This document shows positions 1 to 5,601 of a stretch of DNA of 5,601 nucleotides, piece by piece. Both the position numbers and the translations under genes were made by a program. The notes below the pieces were generated by a model. It was not told the origin of the DNA and did not search any database. It saw only the letters and a list, made by a program, of their open reading frames with translations. Numbering within the stretch: position 1 is the stretch's first letter; each line of letters begins with the position of its first letter. The DNA comes from a bacterium (lineage in GTDB: Bacteria; Arandabacterota; Arandabacteria; Arandabacterales; Arandabacteraceae). The stretch spans positions 1-5,601 of the forward strand of contig JAOZOU010000037.1 in NCBI GenBank assembly GCA_029933125.1, given 5' to 3'.

Positions 1-32
1 AGGCGGCTTAGTGTCTCGGTATCAAGTCAGAA

Positions 33-37
33 AGGAG
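33..37 (+). promoter_or_regulatory. Shine-Dalgarno site of the DUF333 lipoprotein gene
   Basis: AGGAG stands 4 nt before the first ATG (42) and 7 nt before an immediately following in-frame ATG (45). The spacing suits the second ATG better, so initiation at 45 is at least as likely. The two choices differ by a single Met. Confidence 0.7.
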
Positions 38-41
38 CAAA

Positions 42-491
42 ATGATGAATCGTCAGAAACTGCAACAACTACGATGGATGGCTTGCCTGATCTTGGTTGC
101 TGTGCTTTCTACCGGATGTGGTGGGGGGCAGCAGGCTGAGCCAACGGACACCGGCGTAGGTATGCCAAACCCCGCCGCCAGCTATTGTGTTAAATTGGGG
201 TATGAGTACGACCTTGAGAAGGGGGACTGTGTATTTCCCGATGGAACCAGATGTAATTCAGGGGCTTTCTATCGAGGCAAGTGTGGTCAAGAGAAGACGT
301 ATTGTGAACAGCAGGGCTTCAGGATAGAGAATAGGGTGGAAGAGGTAGGTACTACCACTTATGAGTATGCCATCTGTGTCTTCGATGATAACTCTGAGTG
401 TCTTGAAGACGAGTATCTAGCCGGAGAGTGCAAACCGTCCCGGTGTGAAAAATGGTTGTTTGCCGAAGGCGGCTGTGTGGAGAAGAAATAA
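42..491 (+). CDS. Cys-rich DUF333-type lipoprotein
   Basis: The 149-residue product has a basic N-terminus, a hydrophobic stretch (about 14-24) and a lipobox LSTGC with the lipidated Cys at 26, so it should be an exported, membrane-anchored lipoprotein. A short Gly/Gln/Thr linker leads to a DUF333-like unit (about 43-81): NPAASYC, then CVFPDGTRC, then an aromatic-RGKC end. This matches the family pattern NPAxxYC...G.C.lPDG..C..W...RG.C. A second, diverged unit (about 86-130) repeats it as TYCEQQGF, CVFDDNSEC and LAGEC, and a stub (134-145) holds two more Cys. The mature protein has ten Cys after the lipid Cys, which suggests disulfides. DUF333 proteins are sometimes labelled putative hemolysins, but the biochemical role is unknown and no toxin activity can be read here. 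The gene is convergent with the bPH gene; its promoter is not visible in the 41 bp upstream. Confidence 0.88.
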   Translation: MMNRQKLQQLRWMACLILVAVLSTGCGGGQQAEPTDTGVGMPNPAASYCVKLGYEYDLEKGDCVFPDGTRCNSGAFYRGKCGQEKTYCEQQGFRIENRVEEVGTTTYEYAICVFDDNSECLEDEYLAGECKPSRCEKWLFAEGGCVEKK

Positions 492-803
492 GGCTCTTCA
501 GGAAGTAGGGAGGAGAAAGAAGGGCAGGCCATGTTGAGCCAGGGCTTGCAAGCGAAGGCTGTGGCCTGCTAATGGCGCTTTTTCAAGGGGACTTTCCCCG
601 GCGCTTGTGCCATCTCCCGAGGCTGAGCCTGGGTCACCTTCCCGGCCCGCCGTTTGAAGCTTATCATTAGGCGCGCTTGTACCGCGCAAGGCGCGCATAT
701 CGCTCGTTGTGTCGCCGCCCCCCGAGAGATTCAAGCTCGCCCCGTTGTTCTAGGTCGAAAACAGGCTAAAAGGGTTGCCGGAAGACGTCGCGCTATTTCC
801 GGC
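492..803. other. non-coding, structured intergenic region
   Basis: About 310 bp carries no convincing gene; the short open frames here lack Shine-Dalgarno sites and protein-like composition. Two foldable stretches stand out. GCAGGCCA (524-531) pairs with TGGCCTGC (562-569). The loop holds a further AGCC/GGCT pair and the self-complementary GCTTGCAAGC (544-553), and TTTTT follows at 579-583, nine nt beyond the stem. This could be a weak 3'-end structure for the lipoprotein mRNA, but the T run is too far from the stem for a classic terminator. At 671-696, GCGCGCTTG faces CAAGGCGCGC with one bulged G. Nothing else is recognised. Confidence 0.4.
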
Positions 804-846
804 AGCAGGAAAATCAGGGCAGATGGGCTGCCCTGATTTTCCTGCT
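804..846. terminator. bidirectional Rho-independent terminator
   Basis: A perfect 19-bp inverted repeat (804-822 and 828-846) has a 5-nt loop, ATGGG. The GC-rich core GGGCAG/CTGCCC is flanked by AAAATC and GATTTT, so in both directions the hairpin core is followed by a short T run. It lies between the ends of two convergent genes, 15 nt beyond the stop of the minus-strand bPH gene and about 310 nt beyond the plus-strand lipoprotein gene. It therefore most directly ends the minus-strand transcript and also blocks plus-strand read-through. Confidence 0.85.
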
Positions 847-860
847 TTCCTTCGGGAGTC

Positions 861-1520
861 TCACGGCCGTCGTGGTGTACGAAAGGACCAGTGGCACTCG
901 AAAGGGCGACGATTGGTCGAAGGGTCTCCTCTATTGTCATACCCTCCTCCATCATAATCCAATACTCGTCTCTCTCTCTTAAGCGGCGATGGCCTTGGAG
1001 TTGACCAAGCGATGGACTCCCCCTCGGGGCTGATGAAGACCACCTGCGTCAGGTGGAATACAGGTTGGGCAGATGCCGGTGACTGTCCACTAGTCAAAAT
1101 GCTCTTGAATTCCCGAAATCGGCCAATGCGTTCCAGTTTGTCCGGGTTTGCACCCAGGCCCAGTTCTACGTTGCCGCGATCCAAAAGCTTGTCCCAGATA
1201 GACTGCTTGAAGGTCCAATGGGCAAAGGAGTAGTTCAACGCGCGTTCATTGTGTCGGAGGATACCCCATTCGTGAACCAGGCGTCCATTCCTGAAAACAT
1301 AGCGGTTTGCGCGCCAGGCCAGGAAGCGCCAACCGATGGGAATCAGCGGCACGATGCCCACTACCGGCAACCATGGTGCCCGCTTTAGGCCGATCAGCAT
1401 TGAAGCCCCAAGGATCAGCCCCGAACAAAGCAGTCCCACCGCCACAGGTTTTATCAGACATATCCGGTGAGTCCGAAACACTTTCTCACAAGCACTTGAT
1501 CCATTGTTACCGCCGTCCAT
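861..1520 (-). CDS. bPH2-type (DUF304/YdbS-like) two-TM membrane protein
   Basis: The 219-aa product has two hydrophobic segments (about 24-44 and 49-69) forming a membrane hairpin. A bacterial PH-like domain (about 70-140) follows. It opens with NRYVFRNGRLVHEWGILRHN, has the typical aromatic-rich strand leading to QSIWDKLLDRGNVEL, and ends in GRFREFKSIL, as in bPH_2/DUF304 proteins where a TM pair precedes 'Y.vt..rl....Gil.r....ip...i......s...rllg.G.v'. Function in this family is mostly unknown; membrane-surface binding or envelope upkeep is the usual guess. The start is well supported: AGGAGG at 1529-1534, 8 nt before ATG. The last 50 or so residues are rich in Arg/Pro/Asp/Gly and look unlike a folded domain. 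A second frame stays open from about 1045 to 731 and reads more protein-like there, so a frameshift near 969-978 or 1019-1023 is possible. The 804-846 hairpin just past the stop favours the annotated end. Confidence 0.8.
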   Translation of the reverse strand: MDGGNNGSSACEKVFRTHRICLIKPVAVGLLCSGLILGASMLIGLKRAPWLPVVGIVPLIPIGWRFLAWRANRYVFRNGRLVHEWGILRHNERALNYSFAHWTFKQSIWDKLLDRGNVELGLGANPDKLERIGRFREFKSILTSGQSPASAQPVFHLTQVVFISPEGESIAWSTPRPSPLKRERRVLDYDGGGYDNRGDPSTNRRPFECHWSFRTPRRP

Positions 1521-1528
1521 AGCTCATT

Positions 1529-1534
1529 CCTCCT
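1529..1534 (-). promoter_or_regulatory. Shine-Dalgarno site of the bPH gene
   Basis: AGGAGG on the minus strand lies 8 nt before the ATG at 1520 and fixes this start. The rest of the 112-bp gap up to the previous stop at 1633 shows only a weak AGCCG/CGGCT 5-bp inverted repeat and no persuasive promoter, so the gene may be co-transcribed with the one ending at 1633. Confidence 0.8.
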
Positions 1535-1632
1535 GATGCATAAACACTAAAGGTCGCATACCCTCGACAGTACAAGATACGAACTCGATTAGCCGTTATC
1601 GCGGCTCTACGATGTATCACCTGCTGTCACAT

Positions 1633-2430
1633 TTAAGGCTCCCCCCTTTGACCTGACTTCTTAACGCCCTGCTGTGCAAGTAGAAGCCGAGACAGGGGAG
1701 TGCTTTGGGCGAGATCGGGCAAGACGCCTGCCGGCTGTGGGCTGCGACTCACCTTGGCGATATCGGCAGCCCGCTCGCCCAATTGCCCTGCCACCCGTAT
1801 CTGGCCTCCAATTAGCATTTTTTGTGGATCGGGCAGAAGCTGACGTTCGACCCAAGAATGGGTACGTCCTCCGTAATCTGACACTGTCCAAGCGGTGATT
1901 ACTTCTCCATCCTCCAAGTTAATGGTGCGCTCCAATCTGGTATAGGGTTGCGGGGTGTAATGAGGATTGAACAGGCGCATCACGGGGGCCAGAAGCCAGT
2001 CAACACGGACGGCTAGAGGCGGTCCAACTCGTGAGATGCGCAAGGGGAAGGTGCGGGTGCGAGGATCAACGTGAATCTCTGCGGCCTCCCGGCGTTTGCG
2101 CGCTGCATAGGCAGAACAGAACCCCCAGATCACTGTTGTGCTCCCACCGGCCAGGCCCAGCATGATGACCACTAAGGCGATTGTCCCCCAGCGCAAGGAG
2201 GTTTCCTTGGCAGCAATCTCATCATCAGCGGTCGCTTCAGCCTTTTGTTGCTCCAATTCCCTAGCCCGGGTGTCGAGAGCTATAGCGGTGACCGTCGCCA
2301 TCACCCGCGCTTCCGAATCGCGCGCAATTGCGGTAGCTCTTGCCCATTCCTCTGGGCCGGGCTCGTTGCAGGTGGATAGGCATAAGACCGCTTCTAAAAT
2401 GACAACGGTTAAAAGCCATTGACGCTTCAT
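1633..2430 (-). CDS. unrecognised exported/membrane-anchored protein
   Basis: I do not recognise the family. The 265-aa product begins MKRQ followed by a hydrophobic stretch (5-19) ending in LSTC, Cys 21. This resembles a lipobox, but Thr at -1 and a Glu inside the hydrophobic run (13) are atypical, so it may be an uncleaved anchor. Residues 29-76 are Ala/Arg/Glu-rich and probably form a long helix or coiled coil. A second hydrophobic segment (about 81-107) ends at a stop-transfer-like RKRR (111-114). Residues 115-230 form a domain containing FPLRISRVGPPLAVRVDWLL and an ERTINLEDGEVITAW strand pattern; the tail is Gln/Pro/Ser-rich and basic. The expected topology is outside helix, one TM, inside domain. 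The frame is open up to 2601, but that extension crosses a terminator hairpin and lacks coding character. ATG 2430, with GGAGG 12 nt upstream and a signal-like N-terminus, is preferred. The bPH gene lies 112 bp downstream on the same strand, suggesting a joint membrane role. Confidence 0.7.
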   Translation of the reverse strand: MKRQWLLTVVILEAVLCLSTCNEPGPEEWARATAIARDSEARVMATVTAIALDTRARELEQQKAEATADDEIAAKETSLRWGTIALVVIMLGLAGGSTTVIWGFCSAYAARKRREAAEIHVDPRTRTFPLRISRVGPPLAVRVDWLLAPVMRLFNPHYTPQPYTRLERTINLEDGEVITAWTVSDYGGRTHSWVERQLLPDPQKMLIGGQIRVAGQLGERAADIAKVSRSPQPAGVLPDLAQSTPLSRLLLAQQGVKKSGQRGEP

Positions 2431-2442
2431 CTTGCTGTTATA

Positions 2443-2447
2443 CCTCC
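2443..2447 (-). promoter_or_regulatory. Shine-Dalgarno site deciding the 2430 start
   Basis: GGAGG on the minus strand lies 12 nt before ATG 2430. The spacing is longer than ideal, but it is the only good site, and it sits exactly before a signal-like N-terminus. This argues against the longer in-frame start at 2601. Confidence 0.6.
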
Positions 2448-2470
2448 AGCACCCGACTTCCTTGGCACGC

Positions 2471-2508
2471 AAAAAAGCCGCGCCTAACCTTAGTGATGGG
2501 AGCGGCTT
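2471..2508 (-). terminator. minus-strand Rho-independent terminator / possible attenuator
   Basis: Read on the minus strand, AAGCCGC (2508-2502) pairs with GCGGCTT (2481-2475) around a 20-nt loop and runs straight into six T (2476-2471). The loop can form an inner CTAA/TTAG pair. Nothing comparable follows in the plus direction. It lies 41 nt upstream of the 2430 start and about 200 nt beyond the response-regulator stop at 2709. It can therefore end the upstream operon, or act as a leader attenuator for the 2430 gene. Its 5' arm belongs to a 12-bp inverted repeat with 2631-2642, which could form a competing fold. Confidence 0.7.
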
Positions 2509-2533
2509 GATTGCTGAAGTAGCGTTAGTAAAG

Positions 2534-2551
2534 TTTTGACAAAAGTCAAAA
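2534..2551. promoter_or_regulatory. palindrome over the -35 box, possible operator
   Basis: TTTTGACAAAAGTCAAAA is two perfect 7-bp arms (2534-2540 and 2545-2551) around AAAA. It covers the whole -35 hexamer of the plus-strand promoter, a place where a dimeric repressor would block polymerase. It also puts TTGACT and TTGTCA on the minus strand, but no good -10 lies at the right distance there. Operator function is inferred from position and symmetry only. Confidence 0.4.
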
Positions 2552-2564
2552 TGTCTGCTATAAT
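2536..2564 (+). promoter_or_regulatory. consensus sigma-70 promoter, extended -10
   Basis: TTGACA (2536-2541), a 17-bp spacer and TATAAT (2559-2564) match the housekeeping consensus at all twelve positions. TG at 2556-2557 adds an extended -10. Transcription should start near 2570-2573 and run rightward. The plus strand downstream has no gene, since the next genes are on the opposite strand, so the product is most likely an untranslated RNA. Confidence 0.85.
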
Positions 2565-2570
2565 GACAGG

Positions 2571-2668
2571 TGAAGACAGTTCTCAATGTAAGGACCCCCA
2601 CAATATACTGGTTGGAGTAGTGCTTGCCAGGCCGCTCCCATCGGATGTTGTGTGGGGTCCCTTTTTAT
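2571..2668 (+). ncRNA. candidate small RNA, about 95-100 nt
   Basis: This is the interval between the consensus promoter at 2536-2564 and the T run at 2662-2666. After a roughly 20-nt 5' leader, the RNA can fold into one long irregular hairpin. The outer stem pairs 2592-2603 with 2648-2660, 12 bp with one bulged U. An inner stem pairs 2610-2618 with 2634-2642, holding one mismatch and two G-U pairs. A small apical loop includes UUGCCAG. No translatable frame fits: the only early ATG (2587) is followed at once by TAA, and the next (2645) is inside the terminator without a Shine-Dalgarno site. The RNA is antisense to the region beyond the response-regulator stop at 2709. I do not recognise it as a known family; it is too short for typical 6S RNA. 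Start and end are predicted, not measured. Confidence 0.65.
2592..2666 (+). terminator. Rho-independent terminator of the small RNA
   Basis: GGACCCCCACAA (2592-2603) pairs with TTGTG, a bulged T (2653) and GGGGTCC (2648-2660); C and TTTTT follow at once (2661-2666). On the minus strand the same stem is followed by TTAC, not a T run, so termination is one-directional. It also stops plus-strand transcription 40 bp short of the convergent response-regulator gene. Confidence 0.85.
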
Positions 2669-2708
2669 ATATTATACATCGCGCAGTGGCGAAATCCGTC
2701 TATTTTCT

Positions 2709-3095
2709 TTACAGAACTCTCTCAACTGCCTCTTTTAATTTTGAGGGAAGCACGGGCTTCAGCAGAATCTCGGACACTCCGAGGTCTTTTAGCTGCCGAT
2801 GGACGTCCGGACTTCGTACAACGGTACAGACTACAATCGGGATGTTAACGTTATGTTCAGAGCGTAGGGAGCGCAAGACGGAGACACCCCCGTACGATTC
2901 TTCGAGAGCACATTCCTCTCCTGGAGGGAGTATCACGTCCATTATTATGGCATCACAATCCTTGATGGTGGCCACATTTCGTAGCACTTCTGCCTTGGTC
3001 CCAAAGCGTTCGATTTTGTAGCCGGCCTTCTCTAAGGGTTTGATCAGGTCGTAGATGATATATGCATCATCCTCTATCCAGGCGATTGTTTTCAT
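2709..3095 (-). CDS. single-domain (receiver-only) response regulator
   Basis: The 128-aa product is a complete CheY-like receiver and nothing else. Acidic residues E8, D9 and D10 follow the first strand (TIAWIEDD). The phospho-acceptor is D53 in AIIMDVILP, the switch Thr is T91 in IVVCTVV, and the conserved Lys is K113 in LLKP. Between strand 3 and helix 3 it has a slightly long acidic stretch (PPGEECALEESYGG), seen in some stand-alone receivers. With no DNA-binding or enzymatic output it must act by protein contact or as a phosphate relay. The start is ATG 3095, with AGGAGG 6 nt upstream (3102-3107). The frame is open further to 3191, but that part overlaps the kinase and is not protein-like. 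The start overlaps the kinase stop as ATGA, which points to translational coupling and a cognate pair. The chemistry is sure; the target is unknown. Confidence 0.92.
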   Translation of the reverse strand: MKTIAWIEDDAYIIYDLIKPLEKAGYKIERFGTKAEVLRNVATIKDCDAIIMDVILPPGEECALEESYGGVSVLRSLRSEHNVNIPIVVCTVVRSPDVHRQLKDLGVSEILLKPVLPSKLKEAVERVL

Positions 3096-4372
3096 AAGCT
3101 CCCTCCTACTTCGCCCCTCGGCTGTTCGAAGGGCAGCTTGATTTTGAAAGTCGTCAGCCAACCGGATGAGCAGTCTTTGCTGCTGACGCATATCTCACCG
3201 TGATGCATATCTATAACTCTTTTCACATAGTACAACCCGCACCCCGAGCCGGTCCTGCGCTCAGTCTTGGTATGTTTACCTTGATACCCCTTTTCGAAGA
3301 TTTTTTCAAGCTCCTCTTCCTCTATACCGACCCCAAAATTCTGTATGCTTACGAAGTAATTCCCGTTCTCTATCCATCCCTCGACGTCAATCCACCTTTT
3401 GCGCTCGGGAGCTCCGCTGAAGGAATATTTCACCGCGTTCTGGATCAGGTTATGAAAGGCGTAGATCAGGTGGGGACGCGACATCTCGATCATGGGGGAT
3501 TTGTTATCAATCAGCTCCAAGTTGACATTGAAGGTCACTCCTTTTTGCGAGGCCTCAGGGGTGTAAAGGTTAATGCTTTCGTGAATCACCGGTCCGATGG
3601 GCTCTTTGGTGAAGCTAGGTGCTTGCAGATACGATTCAAGGTGATTTTGGACGATGACATCTAACTTGGTGAGTCCTCCCATGATGTCTTGAACGCACAG
3701 CTTGAATTGTTTTCGTGTATTAGGGATTCCACACATATCCATATAGAGGTTCTCACATTTAGCTACTAGGGCTTGTACTTGGATCAGGAACTCATGAGCA
3801 ATGTCTTCCACGTTTTGCTGAAACATCACCTTCTGGCGCCAGTATTGCAAATACAAATTCCTGACCTCTCGCAATGCCCCGAAAATTTCGCTTTCCAATG
3901 TTTCCCGAGGAATAGGAGCTATATCGGCCCACAGCCGATATAGTTCTTGCTTCTCCTGAGGCGACAGATTGCACTCGCGGGCGAAGGAGTCAAACCGCTT
4001 TCTTGCTGCATCATCGAGTGCTTTATCCTGAATTCGAACCTGGCCCCCCATCAGAGTTACCGTCAAACTATCTTCTAATAAAATGGGTAGCTCGCAATTA
4101 TATAGGCCGGCGTGGCACAGTCTGGTACACTCTGTCCGTATTTCCGCCGCCCTTCTCAGGTGATCCTCATCGCACTTCTTTCGCCTCTCCGGTGAGCGGC
4201 GTACCTCCTGGCAAAAGGGCCTAAAGGCCCCCCACGATTTCTCCGTTATCGTTAACTGCTCACGACCGTTACCCCGCTCATATAAGCCCATGGCGATCCC
4301 GGTTTTGGCGACGATCAAGTCTATGAGCATCCGTTCCAATGTGTGGCCGTCCTCGCTAGATCCCTCCACCAC
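3092..4372 (-). CDS. soluble PocR-domain sensor histidine kinase
   Basis: With the GTG start at 4372 the protein has 426 residues and no TM segment, so it should be cytoplasmic. Residues about 12-165 match the PocR sensory domain: PFCQEVRRSPERRKKC, then RLCHAGLYNCELPI and TLMGGQV. A connecting helix leads to the phosphorylation segment VEDIAHEF, with H193 the likely phospho-acceptor; it is a variant of the usual SHELRTPL. The ATPase domain (about 290-415) has N-box HNLIQNAVKYS (N312), G1 box QNFGVGI where Asn (345) replaces the usual Asp, F-box IFEKGYQG and G2 box RTGSGCGL. PocR domains sense small ligands; the ligand here is unknown. Five Cys (54, 67, 82, 86, 93) cluster in the sensor. A TTG at 4393 is in frame, but the Shine-Dalgarno site lies between it and GTG 4372, so GTG is preferred. 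The stop overlaps the receiver start by ATGA, making that receiver the likely partner. Confidence 0.9.
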   Translation of the reverse strand: MVEGSSEDGHTLERMLIDLIVAKTGIAMGLYERGNGREQLTITEKSWGAFRPFCQEVRRSPERRKKCDEDHLRRAAEIRTECTRLCHAGLYNCELPILLEDSLTVTLMGGQVRIQDKALDDAARKRFDSFARECNLSPQEKQELYRLWADIAPIPRETLESEIFGALREVRNLYLQYWRQKVMFQQNVEDIAHEFLIQVQALVAKCENLYMDMCGIPNTRKQFKLCVQDIMGGLTKLDVIVQNHLESYLQAPSFTKEPIGPVIHESINLYTPEASQKGVTFNVNLELIDNKSPMIEMSRPHLIYAFHNLIQNAVKYSFSGAPERKRWIDVEGWIENGNYFVSIQNFGVGIEEEELEKIFEKGYQGKHTKTERRTGSGCGLYYVKRVIDMHHGEICVSSKDCSSGWLTTFKIKLPFEQPRGEVGGSL

Positions 4373-4380
4373 TCGAATCA

Positions 4381-4386
4381 CCTCCC
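4381..4386 (-). promoter_or_regulatory. Shine-Dalgarno site deciding the kinase start
   Basis: GGGAGG on the minus strand lies 8 nt before GTG 4372, a standard distance. An upstream in-frame TTG (4393) has no such site and would place this motif inside the coding region. It is in the 47-nt gap after the 203-aa gene, which otherwise shows nothing, so kinase expression should depend on the upstream operon promoter. Confidence 0.7.
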
Positions 4387-4419
4387 GGCACAAGCCCCGA
4401 CCCGAAGCGGCTAGCGATG

Positions 4420-5031
4420 CTATTTCGGAAGCAAAGACTCGATGTCTTTAGAAAGTTCACGAAGGCGAGTGAGCTCTTGTCTCAGCATAGTCTGAATCTC
4501 GGGCTCCAAATGTTCATACTCTCTCAGTTCATATAACCCTGTCCTATCACCCAGATACCGCAATTTATAATAGTAGAACAATTGCCAAGCGAGCTGGTAT
4601 TCCCTTTCCGACCGTGAGCCTTTTTCAGCTTCTTGAATTATGGTACTAACCCAGGTTCTCATCTCCTCAAATCCCACCCTTCCAAACGGACAACACCATG
4701 GTGGCAGCACCGGTGAGATGAGTTCCCTGGGCTCCTTGTATAGCGTGGGTGTCCTGTATGTGTCCGGCTTCGACCCAAAGAGCCGCTTGCGGACGGCAGA
4801 CTCTAAAGCCGCAGGCATCTCCTCAGCCAGAATATCACCCAGGCGCTCCTCAATGCGCTTGGCATAGGCGGGAGCGATATCAGGGTCTTCAAATACCAGG
4901 TCGATCATTTGATCCGTGATCGCATCGAGACGACCTTCCCGCTGCGCAGCGGACAGGAAATCCAAGAGCTCTGGATATCGCTCATCGGCCAGCAGCTGCT
5001 TCAGTGTAGCTTGAGTATTGTCAGGCCTCAT
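4420..5031 (-). CDS. uncharacterised helical protein between sigma factor and kinase
   Basis: I do not recognise this 203-aa protein. It has no signal peptide and no TM segment, and is acidic and charge-rich. Residues 1-85 look like a bundle of short helices (TLKQLLADERYPELLDFLSA and an ERLGDILAEEMPAAL stretch). A central linker (about 86-120) is Pro-rich and contains PPWCCPFGR with adjacent Cys 113-114. The C-terminal half is helical with an aromatic cluster, LFYYYKLRYLG (151-161), and a Leu/Arg-rich, possibly coiled-coil tail. It lacks the HxxxCxxC zinc motif of ZAS anti-sigma factors. Its place 26 nt after the sigma gene is where anti-sigma factors often lie, so a sigma-binding or adaptor role is a fair guess, but only from position. 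The start is ATG 5031, with GAGAGG 9 nt upstream (5041-5046). Confidence 0.8.
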   Translation of the reverse strand: MRPDNTQATLKQLLADERYPELLDFLSAAQREGRLDAITDQMIDLVFEDPDIAPAYAKRIEERLGDILAEEMPAALESAVRKRLFGSKPDTYRTPTLYKEPRELISPVLPPWCCPFGRVGFEEMRTWVSTIIQEAEKGSRSEREYQLAWQLFYYYKLRYLGDRTGLYELREYEHLEPEIQTMLRQELTRLRELSKDIESLLPK

Positions 5032-5057
5032 ATCTGTTTTCCTCTCTGAATCAAAGT

Positions 5058-5601
5058 CTACCAGGGCTCATCAAGCCACTTCTGCTTGAAAGAAGCCCTA
5101 GCTCGGCGCAGAAGGGATTCGGCTGCGTCATATGAGATGCCTAGCACATATGCGATCTCTTCTATTCCACAGCCGATCATAAAAAACAGGCTTATAGCCA
5201 TGCGCTGTCGAGGAGCCAGGCTCTTGATGATCTGTTGAACGTGGCGTTCCATCTCTGCGGAGAGGACCTTGTCCAAAGTGGGATCTCTGTCGGCTGTTTG
5301 GTCAGCTATTGCCAAAAGCTGGTCCCCATCCTCATCGCCTGGATCAGGTAGAGGGACGTAACGGCTCTGTTCCTTCACTGCCTTGGATAGCAGGCTAAAC
5401 ATCCGATATTTGGCAATGCTCGTAATCCAAACCCGCACGGAGGCGCGGTGGGGATCATACTTGGCGGCCTGCTCAAAAGCCTTCTGAAAGCCATAGGACA
5501 CCGCCTCTTCTACAATGTCTTCAATCATGAACGGTGGAAGAAGGTGCTTGGCCCTGTTCTCACAAAGCCAACGGACATATCCGTACACGTATGTCTTATA
5601 T
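5058..5601 (-). CDS. ECF-type RNA polymerase sigma factor (N-terminus beyond window)
   Basis: The frame runs open off the right edge. A GTG at 5588 could serve as start, but upstream codons (YKTY) continue the expected region 2 pattern, so the real start is probably outside. Counting from that GTG, residues 1-70 are sigma region 2: the VRWLCE helix, IEDIVEEAVSYGFQKAFEQA as the 'a-dlvQetFlraw' counterpart, and DPHRASVRVWITSIAKYRM as the 'f..Wl..Ia.n.~' core. An acidic linker (about 80-105) leads to region 4 (about 120-171): LAPRQRMAISLFFMIGCGIEEIAYVLGISYDAAESLLRRAR is its core, with the recognition helix around ISYDAAESLLRRAR. The protein redirects RNA polymerase to an unknown promoter set. 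It is the first visible gene of a four-gene minus-strand operon. Region 2 is diverged, so assignment to an ECF subgroup is not attempted. Confidence 0.85.
   Translation of the reverse strand, partial: YKTYVYGYVRWLCENRAKHLLPPFMIEDIVEEAVSYGFQKAFEQAAKYDPHRASVRVWITSIAKYRMFSLLSKAVKEQSRYVPLPDPGDEDGDQLLAIADQTADRDPTLDKVLSAEMERHVQQIIKSLAPRQRMAISLFFMIGCGIEEIAYVLGISYDAAESLLRRARASFKQKWLDEPW

What the first reader, a model, noticed from the sequence alone, without database searches (positions are those of the whole stretch)
2536..2668. Candidate new small RNA with a consensus promoter and strong terminator
All twelve promoter positions match consensus, the spacer is 17 bp, an extended -10 is present, and a 12-bp terminator stem with T5 follows about 95 nt later, with no translatable frame between. 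Such a strong promoter for so short a unit, in a region where all flanking genes run the other way, suggests an abundant regulatory RNA. It is antisense to the 3' side of the signalling operon.
Basis: partly seen in the sequence, partly recalled or inferred. Interest (0 to 1): 0.7.

Follow-up and report, generated by a model that had tools for sequence, protein, structure and literature searches.

The report
Antisense RNA facing an attenuator-like leader
A very strong bacterial promoter makes a roughly 96-letter RNA against the leader of the neighbouring gene, and a duplicated 15-letter sequence suggests that this RNA switches that gene off by letting an early transcription stop signal form, as some plasmid copy-number RNAs do.

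Summary
The + strand has a 12/12 sigma-70 promoter (2536-2564, spacer 17, extended -10), and a long hairpin with T5 ends about 96 nt later. Perfect promoters occur 11 times in this genome against 0 in the reversed-pattern control and about 0.85 expected. The other ten stand upstream of plausible genes; only this one drives a short non-coding unit. The RNA folds far better than shuffles (z -4.4), its antisense less so (z -1.65). It has no Rfam match and no homologue in any collection searched.

A minus-strand intrinsic terminator (2508-2475) sits just upstream of the ribosome site and ATG (2430) of the next minus-strand gene, so it lies in that gene's leader. The terminator's 5' arm is repeated in inverted orientation, 14 of 15 bases, inside the stretch covered by the small RNA (2628-2642). 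Those are the only two exact copies of this 15-mer in 3.2 Mb. None of 161 sampled terminators from this genome has such a partner. This is the layout of pT181/pIP501 antisense attenuators: leader, pre-emptor, terminator, and a strong counter-transcript. I judge a cis-antisense attenuator more likely than a trans-acting RNA. No transcript or homologue supports it yet.

The parts
2536..2564 (+). Perfect sigma-70 promoter (TTGACA, 17 bp, TATAAT, extended -10 TG)
   Evidence: 11 perfect sites in the genome vs 0 in the control, the other ten upstream of plausible genes
2534..2551 (.). Perfect palindrome TTTTGAC-AAAA-GTCAAAA over the -35: possible operator; as RNA it forms a small hairpin in the minus-strand leader
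   Evidence: sequence; unique at 0 mismatches and no excess of near copies over control
2571..2666 (+). Predicted antisense RNA, about 96 nt: roughly 20-nt unpaired 5' tail plus one long hairpin (start may be 2570-2572)
2592..2666 (+). Hairpin 2592-2660 and T5 (2662-2666): intrinsic terminator of the antisense RNA
   Evidence: z -4.4; minus-strand copy z -1.65
2628..2642 (-). Pre-emptor (antiterminator) segment GATGGGAGCGGCCTG of the minus-strand leader, inside the stretch covered by the antisense RNA
   Evidence: duplex with terminator arm -29.1 kcal/mol
2475..2509 (-). Leader terminator: 5' arm CAAGCCGCTCCCATC (2509-2495), 3' arm ends about 2475, then T6; hairpin -14.6 kcal/mol
2431..2708 (-). 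Leader/spacer between the response-regulator stop and the start of the downstream gene; holds all regulatory parts
1633..2430 (-). Candidate target gene: 265-aa predicted lipoprotein/membrane protein without known relatives; GGAGG about 12 nt before ATG 2430
   Evidence: lipoprotein reading from the sequence MKRQWLLTVVILEAVLCLSTC
861..1520 (-). Possible second gene of the target unit: 219 aa, weak match to bacterial PH domain (below cut-off)
2709..3095 (-). Response regulator receiver protein, last gene before the leader

Best explanation
The unit makes a cis-encoded antisense RNA that controls, by transcription attenuation, the minus-strand leader in front of the lipoprotein gene 2430-1633. 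Leader RNA comes from read-through of the sigma factor-kinase-response regulator operon or from a weak local promoter. As polymerase crosses the leader, segment 2642-2628 pairs with the 5' arm of the leader terminator (2509-2495) and keeps it open, so the downstream gene(s) are transcribed. When the strongly transcribed + strand RNA (about 2571-2666) pairs with the nascent leader, probably starting at its free 5' tail, the pre-emptor is occupied, the terminator hairpin forms and transcription stops before the gene. Shown by sequence and computation: the promoter, both hairpins with T-tracts, the 14/15 inverted repeat, and the position of the terminator ahead of the ribosome site. Inferred: transcription, the pairing switch, its direction, and the identity of the regulated genes.
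For: Perfect promoter in a genome that demonstrably uses this consensus. Hairpin and T5, z -4.4; the minus-strand copy is only -1.65 and the + helix has five G-U pairs, as expected if structure was selected in the + RNA. Inverted repeat 2495-2509/2628-2642. The two copies are the only exact matches in the 3.2-Mb genome. Terminator arm vs upstream leader: 14/15 observed, maximum 12 in 5000 dinucleotide shuffles. 0 of 161 terminators in 400 kb of this genome have even 12/15 complementarity within 250 nt upstream. No room for a promoter between leader terminator and ribosome site. Stepwise folding of a leader started at 2665: antiterminator pairing probability 0.92-0.999 with the 3' end at 2492-2480, before the terminator is complete; zero when the antisense-covered stretch is blocked. 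Layout and RNA size match pT181 (87-nt RNAI, pre-emptor, terminator next to the start codon) and pIP501 (antisense promoter midway through the leader), as described in PMC5703833.
Against: Once the terminator is fully made it wins in the no-pseudoknot equilibrium model (P 0.84-1.0 for most 3' ends, 0.43 for one), so antitermination must be kinetic or use a pseudoknot, which I could only estimate. With a long leader starting at 2800 the antiterminator pairing is weak (P 0.09 at 2480). No convincing sense promoter: best sites 9/12, as common as chance. No homologue, hence no covariation or conservation. No RNA data. The inverted repeat could be a neutral local duplication.
Confidence: 0.5

Rival explanations
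1. A stand-alone, trans-acting small RNA that happens to sit opposite this spacer and acts on distant mRNAs, with the 5' tail as seed.
For: Strong own promoter and terminator, roughly 20-nt unpaired 5' tail.
Against: Does not explain the 14/15 inverted copy of the leader terminator arm. The 3-nt hairpin loop leaves little seed. Targets could not be searched genome-wide here.
Confidence: 0.2
2. Cis-antisense RNA or promoter that acts by convergent transcription or RNase III cleavage of the read-through transcript, so insulating the gene from the operon, without a pairing switch.
For: Strong promoter firing head-on into the operon's 3' end; about 96 nt of perfect complementarity; separate terminators for both directions.
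Against: The repeat between terminator arm and covered segment is unneeded for this.
Confidence: 0.17
3. A transcribed remnant or by-product: a strong promoter left by a lost gene or element, closed by a terminator, with the inverted repeat left by a local duplication.
For: Locus is an orphan, GC 52.4% against 49.3 +/- 1.2% for the genome, unusual though not extreme tetranucleotides; neither of the two downstream minus-strand proteins occurs in relatives.
Against: Perfect promoter, intact T-tract and strand-biased folding would be expected to decay without selection. Single copy in the genome.
Confidence: 0.13

Closest known systems
pT181 RNAI / repC leader attenuator (staphylococcal plasmid)
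   Same: Short antisense RNA (87 nt there, about 96 here) counter-transcribed to the leader; pre-emptor complementary to the 5' arm of a terminator directly upstream of the start codon (PMC5703833).
   Different: Here no replication gene: the downstream gene is a predicted lipoprotein of unknown function behind a signalling operon. The single long hairpin has a 3-nt loop, and no clear sense promoter was found.
pIP501 RNAIII / repR leader
   Same: Antisense promoter midway through a long leader, inverted repeat with poly-T just 5' of the gene (PMC5703833).
   Different: No CopR-like repressor gene or replication gene in the window; RNA without sequence similarity recognised by Rfam.
RnaG / icsA (Shigella) and RNA-beta / fat-ang operon (Vibrio anguillarum)
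   Same: Antisense RNAs that end transcription early on non-replication genes; RnaG has a much stronger promoter than its target (PMC5394118, PMC8383071).
   Different: RnaG is 450 nt and transcribed within the icsA gene; here the RNA is confined to a spacer and does not overlap a coding region.

Membership tests
Antisense-RNA-mediated transcription attenuators (pT181/pIP501 type) | Antisense RNA encoded opposite the target leader with own promoter and terminator | tested here: met
   Sequence level only:
Antisense-RNA-mediated transcription attenuators (pT181/pIP501 type) | Intrinsic terminator in the leader, between antisense region and the target's ribosome site | tested here: met
   Hairpin 2508-2475 plus T6, gene ATG at 2430
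Antisense-RNA-mediated transcription attenuators (pT181/pIP501 type) | Pre-emptor in the antisense-covered region complementary to the terminator's 5' arm | tested here: met
   14/15, unique in the genome, beyond 5000 shuffles and 161 control terminators
Antisense-RNA-mediated transcription attenuators (pT181/pIP501 type) | Pre-emptor pairing outcompetes the terminator when no antisense RNA is bound | tested here: inconclusive
   Forms first in stepwise folding but loses at equilibrium once the terminator is complete; pseudoknots not modelled
Antisense-RNA-mediated transcription attenuators (pT181/pIP501 type) | Sense promoter for the leader upstream of the pre-emptor | tested here: inconclusive
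   Only 9/12 sites, as frequent as chance; read-through from the operon is possible
Antisense-RNA-mediated transcription attenuators (pT181/pIP501 type) | Antisense RNA shown to cause early termination | not testable with these tools
   Needs transcripts and reporters
Known Rfam RNA families (e.g. 6S RNA, other small RNAs) | Covariance-model match over 2536-2668 | tested here: not met
   No match to E 1 in the region

The most novel reading that the evidence does not exclude
A pT181-like countertranscript attenuator working on a chromosome of a poorly sampled bacterial lineage, uncoupling an orphan envelope protein gene from the sigma factor-kinase-response regulator operon directly upstream.
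Probability: 0.4. Interest if true: 0.6.

Novelty: new variant of a known kind. Interest (0 to 1): 0.42.

Why it matters
Antisense-driven attenuators are known mainly from plasmid replication control, with two other natural cases named in the review read here (PMC8383071). A case between a signalling operon and a membrane-protein gene in an uncultured lineage would suggest that the mechanism is wider spread. It also gives a simple recipe, a perfect promoter opposite a leader whose terminator arm is repeated in inverse, that can be searched for in any genome.

Tried and rejected
Known RNA family: no Rfam match in the region. Multicopy or mobile repeat: only one copy in the genome. DNA homologues: the same-family hit in G004 (L003, E 0.003) lies in what I read as a sigma-54 activator gene and is taken as chance; the other weak hits to distant genomes were not followed. 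The phage hit H1 covers only the AT-rich palindrome; plasmids none. Synteny: no orthologue of gene 3 (2430-1633) or gene 2 (1520-861) in relatives; kinase and receiver hits there are mostly below 40% identity and look like general paralogues; genome and viral collection scans gave none. Small peptide: no frame with a good ribosome site after the transcription start. Regulon operator: near copies of the palindrome are no more frequent than control. Bidirectional terminator: the + hairpin has no U-run on its minus-strand exit, so the two directions have separate terminators. Circular plasmid: the start of the contig does not recur at its end and no replication gene is recognised.

Full report
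OBSERVATION. The + strand of the window carries TTGACA-17-TATAAT with an extended -10 at 2536-2564. Under a first-order Markov model 0.001 such sites are expected in the window and about 0.85 in the genome. The genome has 11, and the pattern read backwards has none. Ten of the 11 stand upstream of plausible genes; the open frame in L028 reads like a GroES and that in L021 like a carbamoyltransferase (my reading of the sequence). So the consensus is used by this organism, and this promoter is the only one of the eleven without a plausible gene behind it. About 96 nt after the expected start a hairpin ends in T5. The RNA folds at -41.1 kcal/mol, z -4.4. The reverse strand reaches only z -1.65, and five of the 33 pairs are G-U, so the structure is better on the + strand. 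No Rfam family matches. Short promoter-terminator units (at least 11/12, terminator within 300 nt) are rare: 3 in a 400-kb sample of this genome, 0 in reversed sequence, and none with a 12/12 promoter.

SURROUNDINGS. All flanking genes from 5600 down to 861 are on the minus strand: sigma factor (5588-5058), unknown (5031-4420), PocR-type sensor kinase (4393-3092), receiver protein (3095-2709), then a 278-bp spacer, then a predicted lipoprotein/membrane protein (2430-1633) and a protein with a weak bacterial PH match (1520-861). The lipoprotein start is my reading: ATG 2430 begins a lipoprotein-like signal, with GGAGG 12 nt upstream. In the spacer, on the minus strand, an intrinsic terminator (2508-2475, T6, -14.6 kcal/mol) ends just before this ribosome site. 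There is no room for a promoter in between and none is seen. The terminator is therefore part of the gene's leader, or the end of the upstream operon that read-through must pass.

KEY FEATURE. The 5' arm of that terminator is present again, inverted, 14 of 15 bases, at 2628-2642. Exact copies of the 15-mer (one position free) occur nowhere else in 3.2 Mb; allowing one mismatch adds a single site. The best score in 5000 dinucleotide shuffles of the leader is 12/15, and 0 of 2000 genome chunks of 199 bp reach 13/15. Of 161 hairpin-plus-T terminators in 400 kb of the same genome, none has even 12/15 complementarity within 250 nt upstream; this one scores 13 in that scan, which used a slightly shifted 15-mer. 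In the minus-strand RNA the two segments pair with -29.1 kcal/mol, and the first lies inside the stretch that the + RNA covers.

MECHANISM. I propose countertranscript-driven attenuation. Stepwise folding of a leader starting at 2665 gives antiterminator pairing (0.92-0.999) while the 3' end is at 2492-2480. Blocking 2571-2665 as if bound by the antisense RNA removes it, and the terminator then forms. After the terminator is complete it is the more stable state in a model without pseudoknots. Leaving the apical loop of the 5' hairpin free costs about 9 kcal/mol, and the gain of the antiterminator over the terminator is about 14 kcal/mol, so a pseudoknotted antiterminator could be close to balance; this is an estimate, not a test. 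With a leader starting at 2800 the antiterminator is weak (0.09). No good sense promoter is visible (9/12 at best, as common as chance). These are the weak points of the model. The palindrome TTTTGAC-AAAA-GTCAAAA over the -35 may bind a repressor and so let a signal turn the antisense RNA off; near copies are not enriched in the genome, so this is speculation.

COMPARISON. PMC5703833 describes pT181 (87-nt RNAI, pre-emptor, terminator upstream of repC) and pIP501 (antisense promoter midway in a long leader, inverted repeat with poly-T before the gene). PMC8383071 and PMC5394118 describe two non-replication cases, RnaG-icsA and RNA-beta. The static features are met here; the functional ones are untested. 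I therefore say it probably works like a pT181-type attenuator, without claiming descent or proven membership.

LIMITS. The locus is an orphan: no credible DNA homologue in 60 genomes, no orthologue of the two downstream proteins in relatives, and nothing in the plasmid, phage, viral or genome collections by the searches made. The contig is only the 5601 bases of the window, and its GC is 52.4% against 49.3 +/- 1.2% for chunks of the genome, so recent acquisition or a wrongly binned contig is possible. If wrongly binned, the promoter statistics from the genome would be less relevant, but the local repeat statistics from shuffles would stand. My confidence is about 0.9 that a real transcription unit is present and 0.5 for the attenuation mechanism.

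Noticed in passing
window 797-855: Near-perfect inverted repeat (GCAGGAAAATCAGGGCAG/CTGCCCTGATTTTCCTGC) between the convergent genes 42-491 (+) and 1520-861 (-); looks like a strong two-way terminator (hairpin -18.9/-19.7 kcal/mol). The weak MIR8001 Rfam match there, far below its gathering score, is taken as spurious.
   Followed up: partly
window 3092-5588: Minus-strand signalling operon: sigma factor, unknown 203-aa protein without Pfam match, kinase with PocR sensory domain, short receiver-only response regulator; no close relatives in the collections searched.
   Followed up: partly
window 1-5601: Contig GC is 2.7 sd above genome chunks and its downstream genes have no relatives in the class: possible acquired island or misbinned contig.
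   Followed up: partly
L021 (G000:C42, near 149332-149359, minus strand): Another perfect promoter precedes a gene that reads like a carbamoyltransferase; its leader holds CCCCGGCTACGGCTGGGGGACAAATTTTT, a terminator-like hairpin before the gene, possibly a separate attenuator.
   Followed up: no
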